The notes beneath the pieces are model-generated. The model was not told the origin of the DNA. It searched no databases and saw nothing but the letters and a program-made list of their open reading frames with translations. A DNA stretch of 41,973 nucleotides from Gammaproteobacteria bacterium F7. Its GTDB lineage: Bacteria > Pseudomonadota > Gammaproteobacteria > Pseudomonadales > IMCC2047. The position numbers were made by a program, and so were the translations under genes. The stretch is from assembly GCA_001593685.1 (NCBI GenBank), contig LUKI01000018.1, positions 1 to 41,973 of the forward strand, read 5' to 3'. Of this stretch, positions 20,123 through 26,146 are shown one piece after another (position 1 is the stretch's first letter; every line of letters begins with the position of its first letter).

Positions 20123-20209
20123 GCCCGGGTGGTGAAATTGGTAGACACACAAGACTTAAAATCTTGCGACTTAACGGTCGTGCCGGTTCGATTCCGGCCC
20201 CGGGCACCA
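20123..20209 (+). tRNA. leuZ: tRNA-Leu(TAA), integration site
   Basis: The 87-nt class II tRNA has acceptor GCCCGGG / CCCGGGC, anticodon stem CAAGA / TCTTG with loop CTTAAAA (anticodon TAA), a long variable arm, T-loop TTCGATT and CCA. The gene is intact. Its 3' half from the anticodon stem onward is duplicated at 28744-28803, which marks it as the attachment site of the adjoining element. Confidence 0.98.
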
Positions 20210-20211
20210 TT
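20151..20211 (+). repeat. attL: tRNA-Leu 3' half direct repeat
   Basis: The 61 nt from AAGACTTAAAATCTTGCGAC to CACCATT match 28744-28803 with a single one-base indel: the acceptor stem has CCCCGGG here and CCCCGG on the right. The core contains the anticodon stem-loop dyad CAAGACTTAAAATCTTG, a typical crossover region for tRNA-targeting tyrosine integrases. Confidence 0.95.
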
Positions 20212-20263
20212 TATATCAAGCATTCCAGCGTTAGTAGCCACTAACAACAAAACTCAAAACCAT

Positions 20264-20293
20264 AAAAAATAGACCAAAAAATAGACCAGTCAC
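20264..20293 (+). repeat. Left integrase arm-type site candidate
   Basis: A 30-nt segment made of two copies of AAAAAATAGACC plus a short tail (AGTCAC) recurs at 28594-28623 with one mismatch. One copy lies inside each end of the element, and the right copy is immediately upstream of the integrase gene. Duplicated short direct repeats near both att sites are the usual form of integrase arm-binding sites. Confidence 0.75.
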
Positions 20294-20331
20294 TGCGACT
20301 AAAATATTTTTTATTTATTTTCCCCTGGCAT

Positions 20332-20357
20332 AAAAAAAGCGACTCGAAAGCCGCTTT
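20332..20357 (-). terminator. Terminator of the 158-aa cargo gene
   Basis: On the minus strand AAAGCGGC pairs with GTCGCTTT (one G-T pair) around a 6-nt loop and runs into a T tract. It lies 40 nt after the stop of the 20397-20873 gene. Confidence 0.75.
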
Positions 20358-20396
20358 AATCTCAAGACGATCTAGCTTTAAGATTTAAAATCCATT

Positions 20397-20873
20397 TTAT
20401 TCTACCGACAAATGTGTTGCCCTCCGCACTGCATTTAGCAGGGCCGTTTGCAGACACATAACATCGTTAACATCGGAACCCTCTCGCCAACCATTAGTAT
20501 GAAGCCCTATTTCGCTTATCAAACTGCCAATGTGAGAATGACTTTCAATATCCGTATCTAACATGAGTTCGATTTTTAGAATTAAGCGGGCAATTTTTTG
20601 ACTATCCAAGGTAGGACTTGCCTCAAAATCGGTTAACGCCAAAAGCTCTGCAACAGCTCCTTGAAGTCCTGCCCGCCAGGTTTCAAATTGCCTTAAGTTA
20701 AATTCTGATTTTAATTGGAGTTTTACCCGATCAGCTTCAGAGCTAATCAAGCGTTTAGTAACACTCCATTGAACCAAACCGGAACAGGCAGCAACAAAGA
20801 CCATCCCAACAACTGTAATCATTGATGCAATAACGACAGGGTCTGTAGCACTTACATTTCCTTCATCCAACAT
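20397..20873 (-). CDS. Hypothetical single-pass membrane protein (cargo)
   Basis: The 158-residue protein has one clear transmembrane segment near residues 13-38 (ASMITVVGMVFVAACSGLV). A basic, probably helical stretch follows (KRLISSEADRVKLQLKSEFNLRQFE) and then a soluble alpha-helical domain. I recognise no family. It lies in the cargo slot beside attL, on the opposite strand to the kinase operon, with its own terminator. N-terminally anchored helical proteins are common among phage-defence effectors, but nothing in the sequence proves that role. Confidence 0.6.
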   Translation of the reverse strand: MLDEGNVSATDPVVIASMITVVGMVFVAACSGLVQWSVTKRLISSEADRVKLQLKSEFNLRQFETWRAGLQGAVAELLALTDFEASPTLDSQKIARLILKIELMLDTDIESHSHIGSLISEIGLHTNGWREGSDVNDVMCLQTALLNAVRRATHLSVE

Positions 20874-21075
20874 AACACCCTCCTTGTGCTCTAAAAGTCA
20901 TATACTTTGCTTCAAAGTAGCCCCACTTATCAACACTCCTATTAAAGCAAATACCAAGACACTCCTTTCCAGAGTCTAGCTTAAATGCTTTAATTTGGGC
21001 TTCCCTCGTTAACTACCATGTAATGAATGCCCAAATAAAATTTACGGAATAACGAATACTAAACGGATCTATAAA

Positions 21076-21789
21076 ATGGCGCTTACACCTGACGAGCAGA
21101 AAGTAGCAAATAAAGCTATCGAGTTCGCAAATAAAAACAAAAAACAAATAGCTAAAGAGCTAATCGAAGCCGGCTCTTATGAGTCTGAAGATAACCCTGT
21201 ATCTGTATTTATGGCTGGCTCTCCTGGTGCCGGAAAAACTGAAACATCAAAAGCACTAATTGATACATTTGATGGCGGCATTATTCGCATTGATGCGGAC
21301 GACCTCAGAGACCGCTTTGAAGATTACAACGGCAACAACTCTTATCTCTTCCAAGCTTCAGCTTCAATTTTAGTTGAAAAAATTCATGATCTAGTGCTAA
21401 AAAAAAATCAAAGCTTCATATTGGATGGCACTCTAACTAATTACAATAAAGCTGTTACTAATATAGATAGATCCATTAAGCGCGGCAGACCCGTTTACAT
21501 TCTTTATGTGTACCAAAACCCTGAACTAGCATGGGAATTCGTTCAGGCTCGTGAAATTGTGGAAGGGCGTCGCGTTTTAAAAAGCACGTTTTTAGACCAA
21601 TATTTTTTAGCTAGAGACGTTGTAAACAACCTTAAAGCACACTACAAAGATAAGATTCAAGTAGAGCTCCTAATTAAAGACAGCACTAACTCTACAAGGG
21701 AATATAAGGCAAACATCGACGTTATTGACAACCATATCCCCGAATCCTATACTCGCGCGCAACTTGAAGAACGCCTCGACATAAGCTAG
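21076..21789 (+). CDS. Zeta-toxin-like kinase (cargo)
   Basis: The 237-residue P-loop kinase has Walker A GSPGAGKT at residues 48-55, the zeta-type IDADDLR near 72-78 and FILDGTL near 114-120. Arg-containing motifs (QAREIVEGRR) lie near 157. Zeta toxins (PF06414) phosphorylate UDP-N-acetylglucosamine and poison peptidoglycan synthesis; relatives phosphorylate other small molecules or nucleotides. No epsilon-type antitoxin lies upstream. A 54-aa basic protein follows after 10 nt. The codons are noticeably more AT-rich than the core genes, consistent with cargo. Confidence 0.85.
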   Translation: MALTPDEQKVANKAIEFANKNKKQIAKELIEAGSYESEDNPVSVFMAGSPGAGKTETSKALIDTFDGGIIRIDADDLRDRFEDYNGNNSYLFQASASILVEKIHDLVLKKNQSFILDGTLTNYNKAVTNIDRSIKRGRPVYILYVYQNPELAWEFVQAREIVEGRRVLKSTFLDQYFLARDVVNNLKAHYKDKIQVELLIKDSTNSTREYKANIDVIDNHIPESYTRAQLEERLDIS

Positions 21790-21799
21790 GGTGACATTT

Positions 21800-21964
21800 A
21801 TGAAATTTATTACTCGCAAAAAAACGGGCACAACAACTACTTTCTCAGACTTCATGAGAACAGCGTCTTCTAGTGATAGGAAGAAAGTGTATACAGCCGT
21901 TTTAAAGACCGCTTCTGACAGCCAAAAAAGAGTTATTGAGCAAGCACGCTGCGCACAAGCATAA
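21800..21964 (+). CDS. 54-aa basic protein, putative partner/antitoxin of the zeta-like kinase
   Basis: The short frame starts MKFITRKKTGTTTTFSDFMR and continues with SSSDRKKVYTAVLKTASDSQ. It begins 10 nt after the kinase stop with AGGGTGA as a good ribosome binding site, and a strong terminator follows 27 nt after its stop, so the two genes form a closed operon. It is basic and predicted largely helical. Size, coupling and position suggest an antitoxin or activity regulator, but its order (toxin first) differs from epsilon/zeta. Confidence 0.75.
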   Translation: MKFITRKKTGTTTTFSDFMRTASSSDRKKVYTAVLKTASDSQKRVIEQARCAQA

Positions 21965-21990
21965 CTCGAGAATGCAAGAATACCATATAG

Positions 21991-22017
21991 AAACCCCGCC
22001 ACTGTGCGGGGTTTTTT
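21991..22017 (+). terminator. Rho-independent terminator of the kinase operon
   Basis: AAACCCCGC / GCGGGGTTT with a 6-nt loop is followed by a T run. It lies just before repeat copy A. Confidence 0.93.
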
Positions 22018-22024
22018 GTGCCTA

Positions 22025-22115
22025 CTAACTTTTAATTTTATTTTTTGTCCATGTAAAAATTGACCTAAGGTGGCGGTCTACGGCTCTCAGCTCCCAGAGA
22101 TTAGACCCGCCCCAC
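22025..22115. repeat. Element-specific repeat, copy A
   Basis: CTAACTTTTAATTTT at 22025 leads to a conserved core from 22053. The first 34 nt of the core match copy B (24780 on) at 33 positions, including GACCTAAGG and GGCGGTCTACGGCTC. The core ends with CAGAGATTAGACCCGCCCC, shared in close form with copy C. It lies between the cargo operon and the 3' end of the capsid gene. It is a candidate packaging or regulatory site. Confidence 0.8.
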
Positions 22116-22361
22116 CCCTACTGTCGTTCTGTCGCTGTCTTGTGCTTGTGGCACTCTACACAGAGCGTTAAAACTACAGACTCTTGGCCTGGAAGATTTC
22201 ATATTGGAAAGAATGTCAGCGCACTTCACGGTAAATTGTGAAGCCGCTGACTGTCGGGGTTTTCGTAATGACACCGGGCACTCGCCGACTAATCCCAGCA
22301 CGTTAGGGTGCGCCATCCCCTGCGGGAACAGGAGCCGCATGGCGGCCCCCGCTCATTTCGG

Positions 22362-23681
22362 TTAAGGCGTGATGCCAGTGATTTGGCAGAATGCCGTAGG
22401 TTGAGCAACTGCCACGTCGGCACGCATATGCGCCACGAACGCATACTGGTGGTTATCAGCGAACTTCTCTCGCAACAGCTCAATACGCAACCCGGATCGA
22501 ATACCAATCATCAACTGACTAAAGTCGCCCATAATTACTCGACTAGCATCAGTAGCCGTTCCGTGCGTTTCATCTACAGGAATTTGCGTAGTGTCTAGCT
22601 TCGGAAGGTTTGCCAATACGTCTGGCTGCCTTAGTGGCTGCCCATCTGTTGCAGTTAGACCAGCTAGACCGAACTTCGTACGTGGGGCCATAATCGCCGC
22701 TGTAGGCTCACTGGAATTAGCGTCTGCAATGTTTTGCATCGCTGTTAAGAACGGGCTGTAGTTAGCCAAAGCCGCACCATTAGCGCCCATATCCACCTCC
22801 AGCACCCCAACGGTGTTTGATAAACCCAGCGGCTCAGGAGCCGTACCCGATCCAAGCAACGCTACACGGTCAATTTCAAGTGCGAGCGATTGAGCTAACG
22901 AATGCAATAACGCCTGGTCGATGTTAACGCTATCCTCTAACAGCTCTCGGCTAACTTTTACCAGCACTGCCAAACTGCGCGCCTGGAATGCCACACTTCC
23001 AAAGGTTGGCTCAGAGTTTGCGATGGCCGCGTCCTCTAGTCGCCAAGCCGGAATAGGGTCGGAAGCTAACCGAGCTATGTTTGTTTTCTCGGTGTTTAGC
23101 TCAACAGTCATAGCGCCTGCCTGTACTGCCCTCGCCTTTTTCCGCATTAAGTCTACAAGTTGACGGCTTAGGGTCTCAGGAACAGTAAAACCGCCCGCAG
23201 TATCGGTGCCCTCGCTCAACGCCTGAACCTCAAGCGATGTTTTCGGCCCCATAACCATCGCTCGCATAATCGAGCCAGCATTTACGTCTTTCAGGTCACC
23301 CGCTTTAGCCGGGTTATACAATAAATCATCAGGCTTATAGACATTCACCTGTTTCCCGTCTGTGTCTGACCATTCTGTATCAGCAGACTTTGAAGATGAA
23401 ACACCTAAACCTTCGTGCTCTGCCAGGAAATCAATTCTGGCCTGGAGATCGTCGCCTACAGCCATTAGCCCATCAAAAGCCAGCTGCTCAGTATTAGTAA
23501 TATGGCGGTTTTCTAATTTGGCCGCATCTAAGATGCGTTCCGCCGAAGCCACGACTTTCTTCTTATCTCGGTTCAAGTCTGCAATATGCGGAATTTTTGG
23601 AGCTGGTTTTTTTAAATGATTTGCCACCAGAGGATCAACAGCAGCAAGCGCTAGTTTTTGTTCTTCGGTCATACCTTTCAT
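22362..23681 (-). CDS. HK97-fold major capsid protein
   Basis: The 439-residue protein of the HK97 capsid family (PF05065) has an N-terminal charged, partly coiled-coil region (about residues 1-120, a delta/scaffold-like domain). The capsid fold then begins near ALSEGTDTAGGFTVPETLSRQLVDLMR. Typical family features follow: NIARLASDPIPAWRLEDAAI, VKVSRELLEDS, LALEIDRVALLGSGTAPEPLGL (E-loop/P-domain) and a C-terminal strand region. A capsid shell is its only plausible role. No separate prohead protease gene and no portal gene neighbour it, although N-domain cleavage is usual in the family. Confidence 0.95.
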   Translation of the reverse strand: MKGMTEEQKLALAAVDPLVANHLKKPAPKIPHIADLNRDKKKVVASAERILDAAKLENRHITNTEQLAFDGLMAVGDDLQARIDFLAEHEGLGVSSSKSADTEWSDTDGKQVNVYKPDDLLYNPAKAGDLKDVNAGSIMRAMVMGPKTSLEVQALSEGTDTAGGFTVPETLSRQLVDLMRKKARAVQAGAMTVELNTEKTNIARLASDPIPAWRLEDAAIANSEPTFGSVAFQARSLAVLVKVSRELLEDSVNIDQALLHSLAQSLALEIDRVALLGSGTAPEPLGLSNTVGVLEVDMGANGAALANYSPFLTAMQNIADANSSEPTAAIMAPRTKFGLAGLTATDGQPLRQPDVLANLPKLDTTQIPVDETHGTATDASRVIMGDFSQLMIGIRSGLRIELLREKFADNHQYAFVAHMRADVAVAQPTAFCQITGITP

Positions 23682-23753
23682 AAGTAGTTACCTATAAAGT
23701 TTTGGTGACCGGGCTGGAGTTGTTTGATACGCAGCGCCGGACACCAGATAAAT

Positions 23754-23972
23754 TTAATTAACTGGTTTGCCGACAACTGTGTCCAAACGCTGTTGGAGGG
23801 CGGTTGTCTTTAGCTGGTACAAGGGATGCCTTGTTACCTCGCCAAGCCTACGGTTTTTAAGAAGCCTGCAATCAACAAAACCGTTGAAAATGTAATTGCA
23901 GTTAGTAGCGCTTTGCCGAAGGTGTCCGGCTAAAGGCCTTTCGATATTTACAAGTGTAATTGTACCACCCAT
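23754..23972 (-). CDS. Small hypothetical protein upstream of capsid
   Basis: The 72-residue frame begins MGGTITLVNIERPLAGHLRQ and is basic overall. It fills the space between the capsid gene and the 140-aa phage-type gene on the same strand. The ribosome binding site is weak (AGGA, about 10 nt away) and I recognise no family. Its position suggests an element protein, but it could be a spurious frame. Confidence 0.4.
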   Translation of the reverse strand: MGGTITLVNIERPLAGHLRQSATNCNYIFNGFVDCRLLKNRRLGEVTRHPLYQLKTTALQQRLDTVVGKPVN

Positions 23973-23993
23973 ATCTTAGCTATCCTATTGTTT

Positions 23994-24416
23994 TTAATAT
24001 GTTTTATTTAAATTTAAAGCAACTTTTTCCACTTCAGTTAACAGGTTTAAGCGCACCAAATAATCCTTTTCAGACTCTCTGGGGTCTATCTTATCCATCC
24101 AGCAAGTAGGGGTAATTTTGCGACGCTCTTCTGAAGCCTCAAAAGCCCACCAAGCCCAAGGACGACGAAACAGGCCTATTGGCTCAAGCAATGGCTGACC
24201 CCTCTTTTCAACGTGGTCACGCTGACAATATTCCATCACCTCGCGCTTATACCTTTGCCAATACTCGTAAGCACGCTGCTTGCCTTCTTCAGATTCTTGG
24301 AGCCGCCCAGCTGACGAACTTAGTTCACCAAGCCAGTCGTCACCGCTCATTAGGGCAATCAAAATGCCCTCTGTCATTTTCAGCTCTGTTTTCTTAGCTC
24401 TTACACGTTTAACCAT
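23994..24416 (-). CDS. Phage-type hypothetical protein next to the small terminase
   Basis: The 140-residue protein contains RRPWAWWAFEASEERR and ESEKDYLVRLNLLTEVE. I recognise this pattern from uncharacterised proteins encoded beside P27-type small terminases. The start overlaps the end of the terminase gene by 8 nt, with GAGG just upstream of its ATG, so translation is probably coupled. The function is unknown; a role in packaging or capsid assembly is inferred only from the pairing. Confidence 0.7.
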   Translation of the reverse strand: MVKRVRAKKTELKMTEGILIALMSGDDWLGELSSSAGRLQESEEGKQRAYEYWQRYKREVMEYCQRDHVEKRGQPLLEPIGLFRRPWAWWAFEASEERRKITPTCWMDKIDPRESEKDYLVRLNLLTEVEKVALNLNKTY

Positions 24417-24741
24417 GCTTGCCTCGCATACAGTCTGGTAGGTCGTTATTGGTTTCTAAATCTTCCAGGTAAAGCTCTCGCATCAGTCGCGCATAACTAA
24501 TCCGCGAATCACGCTCGATGGCGATTTCTGGCCGGGGCTTTTCCTGTTCAAATCGGTCTAACAAGGTCATACCCTTTTCGTTAATGATTTCGCGCGCCTG
24601 GGTTGCTCTATCCAGCGCCTCACAAGCTAGGCGTAAAGTTTTCAATTGGTGCTGTTGCAGGTCATAACTGCCGACAACGTGCTTAAACAGCTTTTTGCTC
24701 TCTGTCGTTAAATGTCTTGGTACTCTTTCGTTGGTGCTCAT
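24409..24741 (-). CDS. terS: P27-family small terminase subunit
   Basis: The 110-residue protein resembles PF05119 small terminases: an N-terminal PRHLTTESKKLFKHVV segment, a central helix with TLRLACEALDRATQAREII, then KPRPEIAIERDSRISYARLMRELYL, the conserved C-terminal part. Small terminases recognise phage packaging sites and recruit the large ATPase/nuclease subunit, which is absent here. The ATG at 24741 (GGA upstream) is preferred over the TTG at 24747. Repeat copy B lies about 40 nt upstream of the start. Confidence 0.83.
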   Translation of the reverse strand: MSTNERVPRHLTTESKKLFKHVVGSYDLQQHQLKTLRLACEALDRATQAREIINEKGMTLLDRFEQEKPRPEIAIERDSRISYARLMRELYLEDLETNNDLPDCMRGKHG

Positions 24742-24779
24742 AATCAATCCAAATTTTTATTTCGTTTCAGTTAGCGCTC

Positions 24780-24862
24780 GTAAAAATTGACCTAAGGCGG
24801 CGGTCTACGGCTCGAAGGCTGTAGAGATTTGACCCCCTATACCCCTTTGTGACCCGCCCGCT
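24780..24862. repeat. Element-specific repeat, copy B (upstream of terS)
   Basis: The core begins GTAAAAATTGACCTAAGG and matches copy A at 33 of the first 34 positions, then continues with GTAGAGATTTGACCCC and a GACCCGCCCGC end. It lies in the 217-nt gap between the replication-type gene and the small terminase gene. Small terminases often act on sites close to their own gene, which makes this a candidate cos or pac site. A late promoter or operator is the alternative. Confidence 0.8.
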
Positions 24863-24920
24863 ATTAACACCCTTAAATGAACCTGAATAACTAGATACAC
24901 ATGGTAGATATATAAAGGTC

Positions 24921-25048
24921 CCCACCTGTGGGCCATAAAGGATGCGAAAACGGCTAATTCACCCATTTAATTGACCCACCTGTGGGCTAATAGGCGAATC
25001 AGGGCGGTTTATTGACCCATCCGTGGGATAGGCTCCCCCACCCGTGGG
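24921..25048. repeat. Iteron cluster: four CCCAYCYGTGGG palindromes
   Basis: CCCACCTGTGGG lies at 24921-24932 and 24975-24986, CCCATCCGTGGG at 25016-25027 and CCCACCCGTGGG at 25037-25048. Centre-to-centre distances are 54, 41 and 21 nt, close to 5, 4 and 2 helical turns. Three lie inside the 3' end of the replication-type gene and one just beyond its stop. This is a candidate replication origin or a multi-site operator. Confidence 0.8.
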
Positions 25049-25510
25049 GTAAGCGTTCTGTTGCGGCCCCCTTTTCGGGTTCCACTTTTTCTTCGTAAGC
25101 TTGTAGTTGTGATTTGCCGCCGTCGTCGCGCTCAAGTCATGCTTTCCTTTGCATTCGTCGATTGGGTAGCAGGTCATTGCCAGTAGCGTTGGCTGCTTTC
25201 GCCCACCTTGGCGCGACACAATTACAAACTCGTAATACAGTAGCTCTTTAAGGGCTAAGCCTAGGTTCGACTTCGACGACCAACCGCGCTTTTCCATAAG
25301 CGCCATACACGCTGACAAATCCCCGTTATTACTTCCGTTGTATTGCGACAGAAGATCGTTAAACAGCTTTACAGCTCTTGGGGTTAGCTTGATGTAATTA
25401 GGATGGTCTAGAACGTCCCGGAAAAGCTGAACAAACAGCCTTCCGTTACGCCTTGCCTTCGACCGCTCAAGCGAAGCCATTAGCCCTTCCCGAGTGTAAC
25501 TGCCTGCCAT
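24959..25510 (-). CDS. Probable replication protein (helix-turn-helix type)
   Basis: The 183-residue protein has a central winged-helix-like domain (FVQLFRDVLDHPNYIKLT to MEKRGWSSKSNLGLALKELL). This resembles uncharacterised replication or regulatory proteins of phages and islands. The C-terminal ~50 residues are low-complexity and Gly/Pro-rich (YPTGGGAYPTDGS) because the DNA there carries the iterons. Origins nested in initiator genes are common, which supports a replication role. The start overlaps the upstream gene by 31 nt. No primase or helicase motif is seen. Confidence 0.6.
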   Translation of the reverse strand: MAGSYTREGLMASLERSKARRNGRLFVQLFRDVLDHPNYIKLTPRAVKLFNDLLSQYNGSNNGDLSACMALMEKRGWSSKSNLGLALKELLYYEFVIVSRQGGRKQPTLLAMTCYPIDECKGKHDLSATTAANHNYKLTKKKWNPKRGPQQNAYPTGGGAYPTDGSINRPDSPISPQVGQLNG

Positions 25511-25842
25511 CGGTGAGCGCGGCTTTCCTCACCGAACCGGTTTTGAAGGCGGCCATCACGTTTAGGCAAGTAGCAAAAGACACGAATACCTGCCTGATCC
25601 AACTCTGGTCGCATTCGCATCACCGCGTCAGATACATTTGAACAGGCGCACTCACGTGCTATTTGATGCGTCCAGGCTCCGTTATGGGAAGCAAGGAACG
25701 CAAGCACCCGTTTAGATGCTGGCCTGCTAATCCGTGGCAATACTTCTGCAATCCGGCCTTCTAGCGTTGGTTGTTTTGGAGTAGAATTGTCTGTGTTGGA
25801 TTTGGAGTGAGCGGCCGCCACAGCCGCTTGTTCTAACTTCAT
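25480..25842 (-). CDS. Hypothetical winged-helix-like protein
   Basis: The 120-residue protein has a disordered N-terminus and a helix-turn-helix-like segment (RPASKRVLAFLASHNGAWTH, then QIARECACSNVSDAVMRMRPELDQ) with a Cys pair. Its layout suits DNA binding in replication control or regulation. It lies 2 nt after the AlpA-like gene stop and overlaps the next gene by 31 nt, so the early genes form one operon. The family is not recognised. Confidence 0.6.
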   Translation of the reverse strand: MKLEQAAVAAAHSKSNTDNSTPKQPTLEGRIAEVLPRISRPASKRVLAFLASHNGAWTHQIARECACSNVSDAVMRMRPELDQAGIRVFCYLPKRDGRLQNRFGEESRAHRWQAVTLGKG

Positions 25843-25844
25843 TT

Positions 25845-26048
25845 CTACCCCTCCTGCTCTGGCTGAACAAGTCGGCTACTAATAAAGCTTGTAACCCCTG
25901 ACTTGGGGTAATAAATATCAGCCCCAATTTTCACATACTCAGGGCCTTTACCGAGGCACCGCCAGTTTGCGAGAGTTTTAGGAGCCTTTCCCAGCATAAC
26001 GGCTAACATAGCCGCCGGAATTAATTCGTCTAACGTAATGTTTTTCAT
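25845..26048 (-). CDS. AlpA/excisionase-like HTH protein
   Basis: The 67-residue protein starts MKNITLDELIPAAMLAVMLG and has a MerR-like helix-turn-helix (APKTLANWRCLGKGPEYVKI) followed by the wing IYYPKSGVTSFISSR, the pattern of AlpA/Xis-type proteins. In satellites such proteins switch on excision and the early operon. The frame is open to 26090, but the ATG at 26048 with GGGATGGGA upstream fits the family. It is the first gene of the operon that runs to the capsid. A perfect dyad lies about 100 nt upstream. Confidence 0.8.
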   Translation of the reverse strand: MKNITLDELIPAAMLAVMLGKAPKTLANWRCLGKGPEYVKIGADIYYPKSGVTSFISSRLVQPEQEG

Positions 26049-26146
26049 TGTCCCATCCCATGCTAAAAAAACGACATAGGCACTAATCACTTCCTGGGAT
26101 TAATGCCTCTCTTTTGTTCACAGTTGGGATATTACGGGAGGGCATT

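What the first reader, a model, noticed from the sequence alone, without database searches (positions are those of the whole stretch)
21076..21964. Zeta-like kinase followed by a 54-aa partner: unusual order toxin-antitoxin or defence operon
The kinase has all P-loop and zeta motifs but no upstream epsilon-like antitoxin. A small basic helical protein follows 10 nt later in the same closed operon. Placement in a satellite cargo slot suggests anti-phage abortive infection.
Basis: partly seen in the sequence, partly recalled or inferred. Interest (0 to 1): 0.6.

Follow-up and report, generated by a model that had tools for sequence, protein, structure and literature searches.

The report
Toxin-first zeta kinase–antitoxin pair
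A virus-satellite in a bacterial genome carries a gene pair, a kinase related to known bacterial toxins and a tiny partner protein, that recurs in many phages and bacteria and looks like a toxin with its own antidote; it has not been tested in the laboratory.

Summary
Window 21076-21789(+) encodes a 237-aa zeta-superfamily kinase (PF06414, E 4e-40). A 54-aa (or 57-aa, GTG start) protein follows, then a hairpin terminator. No epsilon gene precedes it.

The small gene is a conserved partner. All 46 phage-contig kinases of at least 41% identity, found by kinase alone, have it directly downstream; 9 remote kinases (26-32%) and 5 plasmid ones (24-39%) do not.

New here: the kinase gene carries a sigma-70-like promoter (TTGACA-17-TATACT) just before the small gene, fixed by codon choice across 25 diverged kinases: aspartate is GAC at the -35 (19 of 20) and GAT at the -10 (8 of 8). 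A toxin-first module needs such a promoter for its antitoxin. AlphaFold packs the small protein on the kinase (read as one chain, pTM 0.87). Kinases decay while the small gene stays.

Best reading: a toxin-first zeta-type toxin-antitoxin module with an antitoxin unlike epsilon or Arc1, carried by satellites and phages; phage defence is plausible, untested. UNAG-binding residues are mostly not kept, so the substrate probably differs. The small gene also follows Fic, AbiE and truncated HigBA genes and stands alone on a podovirus-like contig.

The parts
21076..21789 (+). Zeta-superfamily kinase, 237 aa, proposed toxin (P-loop GSPGAGKT residues 48-55, K54, D75, R78)
21800..21964 (+). 54-aa basic two-helix protein, proposed antitoxin; alternative GTG start at 21791 (57 aa)
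21725..21753 (+). Internal sigma-70-like promoter TTGACA-17-TATACT inside the kinase gene, upstream of the small gene
21984..22020 (+). Hairpin followed by U-run, terminator of the pair
20123..20209 (+). tRNA-Leu(UAA), integration site of the satellite
20151..20203 (+). Left copy of the 53-nt attachment repeat
28744..28796 (+). Right copy of the 53-nt attachment repeat
27316..28581 (-). Tyrosine integrase of the satellite (context)
25845..26090 (-). AlpA-like HTH protein (context)
   Evidence: HTH_17 below Pfam cut-off; AlpA name is recall
24409..24747 (-). P27-type small terminase subunit (context)
22362..23681 (-). HK97-type major capsid protein (context)

Best explanation
The two genes form a toxin-first, protein-protein (type II-like) toxin-antitoxin module. 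The first gene encodes a zeta-superfamily P-loop kinase that, when free, phosphorylates an essential small molecule or nucleic-acid substrate, probably not UDP-GlcNAc, and stops growth (inferred). The second encodes a small basic helical antitoxin, without a match in Pfam, NCBIfam, PADLOC or the PDB, that binds the kinase on or near its active-site and lid face (predicted complex; the face is inferred). The antitoxin is made in two ways: by translational coupling on the operon transcript, and from its own promoter inside the 3' end of the kinase gene (codon-level conservation shown; promoter activity inferred), which keeps it in excess. When a phage upsets transcription or the labile antitoxin is lost, the kinase is freed and aborts the infection, or punishes loss of the element (inferred from cargo context).
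For: (1) Pair conservation: of 55 viral-contig kinases, all 46 with >=41% identity carry the partner on the same strand just downstream; the other 9 (26-32%) do not. These loci were found with kinase patterns only. Over all deduplicated contigs, 62 of 68 good kinase hits have it; the six without are L016 (kinase cut at its 3' end) and five plasmid loci L022-L026 of 24-39% identity. (2) Coupling: ATGA overlap (-4) in 16 of 45 loci; the others have a start codon within about 45 nt of the stop. (3) Internal promoter: in 25 kinases under 80% identical, Asp218 is GAC in 19 of 20 (other Asp columns 0.19-0.62 GAC, overall 169 of 378) and Asp226 is GAT in 8 of 8; Ile/Val codon ending TT plus GAC in 16 of 20 against null mean 3.7 (0 of 5000 shuffles reach it); TAT plus GAT/ACT in 10 of 15, p 0.0004. 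(4) Joint AlphaFold model pLDDT 90, pTM 0.87, small part 91-95. (5) Co-inheritance: 26 pairs, Mantel r 0.73, 0 of 5000 permutations as high. (6) One-sided decay: 11 loci with frameshifted or cut kinase and 3 with remnants keep an intact small gene; no intact kinase of the close group lost it. (7) Catalytic residues kept.
Against: No toxicity, binding or phage data exist here. The joint model ties both proteins in one chain, which favours packing, and no unrelated-partner control was run. Orphan small genes evolve less constrained (omega about 0.3-0.45 against the nearest paired copy, versus 0.03-0.07 among paired ones), so keeping them may be passive. Kinase genes are four times longer, so target size alone favours kinase lesions. 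No PADLOC defence model fits well (best DolB 23.5 bits over residues 13-72). The system is rare: 3 of 369 class genomes at E<=1e-30, own included, and only the own genome of 56 relatives at E<=1e-10. Some diverged loci lack the promoter.
Confidence: 0.68

Rival explanations
1. Split kinase: the small protein is a needed second subunit that completes the kinase fold (like a detached C-terminal helix of zeta) and activates it; the pair together is the effector and there is no antitoxin in the operon, or the small piece both completes and restrains it as HipS does for HipT.
For: The joint model aligns to zeta 1gvn_B over 224 residues reaching chain residue 251, the kinase alone over 212 reaching 232. 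PezT lacking 11 C-terminal residues is less toxic (PMC3062530, passages). HipBST shows a kinase split in two genes (PMC6581861, abstract and passages).
Against: Only 12 more residues are aligned, and Z falls from 19.3 to 18.1. Kinase loss with small retained, orphan small genes on other elements, and a separate promoter for the small gene fit an antitoxin better than an obligate subunit.
Confidence: 0.17
2. Addiction only: a true toxin-antitoxin module whose role is to hold satellites, prophages and plasmids in the cell, with no effect on phage infection.
For: Found on integrated satellites, prophage-like contigs next to integrase- or repressor-like genes, and plasmids.
Against: In three genome loci the pair or the small gene sits beside type I restriction or Abi genes, and an orphan copy lies on a podovirus-like contig, which suggests conflict with phages.
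Confidence: 0.3
3. Metabolic or nucleic-acid repair kinase (polynucleotide- or nucleotide-kinase-like) with a small chaperone, not toxic; a fitness gene of phages.
For: The fold also resembles polynucleotide kinase 4gp7 (Z 15.4) and tRNA kinase 3a4l (Z 13.9); substrate residues of zeta are mostly not kept.
Against: Best matches are zeta and PezT (Z 19); one-sided decay and the second promoter are not expected for a metabolic gene.
Confidence: 0.1

Closest known systems
Epsilon/zeta (pSM19035) and PezAT
   Same: Kinase belongs to PF06414; same fold (1gvn_B Z 19.3, 212 residues; 2p5t_F Z 19.0); K54, T55, D75, R78 match the catalytic set.
   Different: No epsilon/PezA gene; partner downstream, 54 aa, unrelated by profile search; UNAG-binding residues mostly not conserved; own promoter for the second gene.
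AvrRxo1:Arc1 (zeta superfamily, toxin first; PMC4938570)
   Same: Zeta-like kinase followed by a small antitoxin gene that stays intact when the kinase is broken; UNAG residues not kept; similar fold (4z8v_A Z 15.1).
   Different: Kinase 237 aa instead of 414-421; partner 48-70 aa instead of 81-98; Arc1 motif absent in 32 of 32 partners.
HipBST (split HipA; PMC6581861)
   Same: Kinase toxin with a small protein partner in a coupled operon; precedent that a piece of a toxin can be the antitoxin.
   Different: Unrelated kinase family, three genes, antitoxin gene before the toxin.
MqsRA (PMC6918082)
   Same: Toxin gene first; internal promoters drive the antitoxin.
   Different: Toxin is an RNase and the antitoxin is larger than the toxin (PMC4803016, passages).
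Panacea-type promiscuous antitoxins (PMC8832971, listing only; PMC10440598, passages)
   Same: One antitoxin domain beside several unrelated toxins.
   Different: Different protein; here promiscuity rests on a few loci and may be leftover genes.

Membership tests
Epsilon/zeta and PezAT | Zeta_toxin domain PF06414 | tested here: met
   137.8 bits, cut-off 22.3
Epsilon/zeta and PezAT | Zeta fold | tested here: met
   kinase-alone model, 1gvn_B Z 19.3, rmsd 3.2, 212 aligned
Epsilon/zeta and PezAT | Phosphoryl-transfer residues (zeta K46, T47, D67, K70, R158; list from PMC4938570) | tested here: met
   K54, T55 (S in L081), D75, R78 by alignment to PezT; R159 or R165 by position only
Epsilon/zeta and PezAT | UDP-GlcNAc-binding residues (zeta E100, T118, R120, T121, T128) | tested here: not met
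   only T118 has an invariant counterpart (T119); E101 present in the window but variable in the family; R120, T121, T128 fall on T121, N122, N129
Epsilon/zeta and PezAT | Epsilon/PezA antitoxin gene upstream | tested here: not met
   no ORF of note upstream in the window, no PF08998 match in the genome held
Epsilon/zeta and PezAT | Toxicity by UNAG phosphorylation | not testable with these tools
   needs enzyme assay
AvrRxo1:Arc1 | Toxin gene first, small partner downstream | tested here: met
AvrRxo1:Arc1 | Arc1 motif KExFD(x25-27)(Y/L)ExxYY and 81-98 aa (81-121 in distant homologues) | tested here: not met
   0 of 32 partners have the motif; lengths 48-70 (motif)
Type II toxin-antitoxin | Antitoxin protein binds the toxin | tested here: inconclusive
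   joint AlphaFold model pTM 0.87, tethered chain, no negative control
Type II toxin-antitoxin | Toxin arrests growth and antitoxin relieves it | not testable with these tools
   bench test
Split-toxin pair (HipST-like) | Small protein corresponds to a missing part of the toxin fold | tested here: inconclusive
   12 further aligned residues with the small protein present
Known anti-phage systems (PADLOC-DB 2.0.0) | Match to a defence model over its length | tested here: not met
   kinase: only partial matches (best DolB 23.5 bits, residues 13-72); small protein: none

The most novel reading that the evidence does not exclude
The small protein is a promiscuous, mobile antitoxin: besides zeta-type kinases it neutralises other nucleotide-transferring toxins such as Fic and AbiEii enzymes, and phages carry free copies as an antidote against host modules of this kind.
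Probability: 0.13. Interest if true: 0.78.

Novelty: new variant of a known kind. Interest (0 to 1): 0.58.

Why it matters
Zeta-type kinases are common in bacteria and phages, and many sit in databases with no known antitoxin. This gives a whole subfamily, from Proteobacteria to a Patescibacteria-labelled contig and an Enterococcus phage record, a definite partner and a testable control circuit. The codon-fixed promoter inside the toxin gene is direct evolutionary evidence that the partner must be made on its own, and can be tested with synonymous changes. If confirmed, the small protein is a handle to find the kinase's substrate and to ask whether satellites use it against phages.

Tried and rejected
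Close relatives: the kinase alone as query in viral contigs found none; the kinase profile did. The small protein as single query found none there; a profile of close ones did. No relative in complete E. coli genomes by DNA. The small profile has no PDB match (best E 2).

Idea that the ~210-aa downstream partners of Enterobacterales plasmid kinases (L023, L024, L026) carry the same small domain at their N-terminus: not supported by profile comparison (probability 0.2%).

Idea that orphan small genes stay under full selection: not supported; omega rises to about 0.3-0.45 for the L113/L118/L119 lineage. Frameshifted copies in metagenome contigs may include sequencing errors.

Promiscuity: AbiEi-AbiEii-small (L032), Fic-small (L033; a degraded fused form in L035), truncated HigB-HigA-small (L100). 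No kinase remnant was seen before the small gene in these; but L012 has the N-terminal part of a RhuM-like gene before its kinase (named from recall), and L036/L128 keeps what reads like the kinase N-terminus before an orphan small gene, so leftover genes are at least as likely as true pairing. HigA in L100 is named from recall; Pfam gave no hit for it.

Promoter: the plain consensus scan alone would be weak (2 found, 2.5 expected; 7 of 32 loci p<=0.05 by codon permutation); diverged loci such as L017, L019, L039, L047, L052, L058 and L081 lack a good match. The column-wise codon test is what carries the claim.

Literature searches for this pair: (open-licence PubMed Central only); none of the listed titles or the passages read describes it. 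Subscription papers were not searchable.

Full report
What is there. The window holds a satellite element between two copies of the 3' part of a tRNA-Leu gene (53 identical nt at 20151-20203 and 28744-28796). Its left end carries the kinase gene 21076-21789(+) and the 54-aa gene 21800-21964(+). A hairpin with a U-run follows at 21984-22020. The rest is on the other strand: HK97 capsid, P27 terminase small subunit, small unknown genes, an AlpA-like protein, an int-alpA RNA match and a tyrosine integrase.

The kinase. PF06414 matches residues 35-213. An AlphaFold model of the kinase alone (31 sequences, pLDDT 90.7, pTM 0.87) is closest to zeta (1gvn_B Z 19.3, 212 aligned, rmsd 3.2; 3q8x_D Z 19.4) and PezT (2p5t_F Z 19.0), then Neisseria zeta_1 (16.7), bacterial polynucleotide kinase (15.4) and AvrRxo1 (15.1). 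The PezT alignment puts the Walker lysine on K54 and the catalytic aspartate on D75; K54, D73, D75, R78, D117, T119, R159 and R165 are invariant in 31 of 31 aligned kinases. Of the five UNAG-binding residues listed in PMC4938570 (section 5 read) only T118 has an invariant counterpart. So the phosphoryl-transfer machinery is intact and the substrate pocket differs; the same is said of AvrRxo1 there and of a mycobacterial PezT-like toxin in PMC6362051 (passages).

The partner is real and specific. A kinase search of genome contigs gave 7 relatives; 6 have the small ORF just downstream and the seventh, L016, has a kinase with a truncated 3' end. Plasmid relatives from Shewanella and Polaromonas and an Enterococcus phage record also have it. 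A profile of ten such small proteins (A1) was then run on viral contigs that had been found by kinase patterns alone: 46 of 55 loci have it on the same strand directly downstream, the 9 without being 26-32% identical kinases. Over all deduplicated loci, 62 of 68 with a good kinase score have it (many contigs are near copies, 25 of 31 aligned kinases are under 80% identical; the 'intact' flag wrongly includes L064 and L065, which are frameshifted). Five plasmid loci of 24-39% identity (L022-L026) have none; three of these have a ~210-aa protein instead. Small proteins are 48-70 aa with net charge +2 to +10 in 32 of 32 rows. Kinase and partner distances agree (26 pairs, Mantel r 0.73). Paired small genes of the group L042/L043/L047/L051/L052 are under strong purifying selection (omega 0.03-0.07 in the 5 of 10 pairs that could be computed).

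A promoter inside the toxin gene. The scan showed TTGACA-17-TATACT at 21725-21753. It lies on the codons of the motif I-D-x-H-x-P-E-x-Y-[T/D]. Across the 32 loci examined, the same place reads TTGACA or TTGACG, 17 nt, TATGAT or TATACT in many. Protein conservation cannot explain the codons: among 25 kinases under 80% identity, Asp218 is GAC in 19 of 20 while other aspartate columns are 19-62% GAC, and Asp226, the one in the -10 box, is GAT in 8 of 8. Shuffling synonymous codons within each gene gave the -35 pattern in 3.7 of 20 on average and never more than 10, against 16 observed; the -10 pattern in 3.7 of 15 against 10 observed, p 0.0004. Some diverged loci lack it. The nearest gene it can serve is the small one. 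MqsRA, another toxin-first module, has internal promoters for its antitoxin (PMC6918082, abstract and passages).

A predicted complex. Kinase and small protein of the window, read as one chain, with 61 aligned rows, gave pLDDT 90.2 and pTM 0.87; the link is disordered (237-251) and the small protein folds as helices 255-262 and 265-294 at pLDDT 91-95. Compared with the kinase alone, confidence rises most at residues 161-170 (80 to 90) and by about 5 at 1-10, 61-70, 111-120 and 151-160, that is around the DGT strand and the arginine-bearing lid; I infer contact there. The joint model reaches zeta residue 251 with 224 aligned instead of 232 with 212, so the long helix may sit where zeta has its own C-terminal helix; the gain is small and I do not build on it.

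Decay is one-sided. Frameshifted or cut kinases with intact partner: L018, L020, L021, L050, L064, L065, L080, L083, L084, L096, L099; remnants: L027, L038, L109; no kinase: L113, L118, L119, L123. L036/L128 keeps what reads like a kinase N-terminus directly before an orphan small gene. No intact close kinase lacks the partner. The same was reported for arc1 beside broken avrRxo1 (PMC4938570, passages). Target size (711 against 165 nt) weakens this argument, and some lesions are shared or may be sequencing errors.

Other neighbours. Small genes also follow AbiEi-AbiEii (L032: PF09952 4e-36, PF08843 1e-10), a Fic protein (L033: PF02661 7e-12) and a truncated HigB (L100: PF05015 2e-10) with a HigA-like ORF. 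One stands alone on a contig with ribonucleotide reductase (L101); that it is a podovirus is my reading of its gene content. Near these loci are Abi_2 and HsdM (L126), HsdM and an HsdR-type protein (L129, with the full kinase pair), and an EcoEI-type R protein (L127). In phage contigs the pair lies next to integrase-, recombinase- or repressor-like genes (names by reading, not by profile).

Frequency. In the class sample 3 of 369 genomes, own included, hold a close kinase at E<=1e-30 and 6 of 369 the small protein at E<=1e-4; in the phylum sample 4 of 398 hold the small protein; of 56 relatives only the own genome has the kinase.

Judgement. The pair is a conserved, toxin-first, zeta-superfamily toxin-antitoxin candidate with an antitoxin family of its own. 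It is not a member of epsilon/zeta (antitoxin and substrate residues differ) nor of AvrRxo1:Arc1 (motif and sizes differ), though it probably works like both. Defence is a reasonable guess from context. I found no description in the open library by the searches.

Noticed in passing
window 28744-30934: Beyond the right attachment repeat the satellite's left-end sequence recurs (54 nt at 83%, 32 nt at 88%), followed by an AAA_15/AAA_21 (OLD-like, by recall) ATPase gene 29042-30799 and a third copy of the 67-nt repeat: it looks like the cargo slot of a second, decayed satellite in tandem, with a different cargo gene.
   Followed up: partly
window 22053-22119, 24780-24846, 30868-30934: A 67-nt direct repeat (81% and 69% to the first copy), found nowhere else in the genome held, brackets the terminase-capsid segment and ends both cargo slots; possibly a packaging or recombination site.
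   Followed up: partly
window 20151-28796: The satellite encodes a capsid protein and small terminase, but no portal or large terminase was recognised among the ORFs scanned; an unusual minimal capsid-bearing satellite.
   Followed up: no
L023:2896-4264, L024:2884-4288, L026:2866-4295: More distant zeta-like kinases on Enterobacter and Kosakonia plasmids are each followed by a ~210-aa protein with a shared N-terminal motif: possibly another toxin-first pair.
   Followed up: partly
L101:3956-4177: Orphan small gene on a phage contig with ribonucleotide reductase: candidate phage-borne antidote.
   Followed up: partly
L100:1100-1805: Truncated HigB, HigA-like ORF and the small gene in one tight row; the truncation seems to lie near a duplicated terminator-like sequence.
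   Followed up: no
L126:4056-11825: AbiEi, AbiEii, small gene, then Abi_2 and HsdM: a compact defence island.
   Followed up: no
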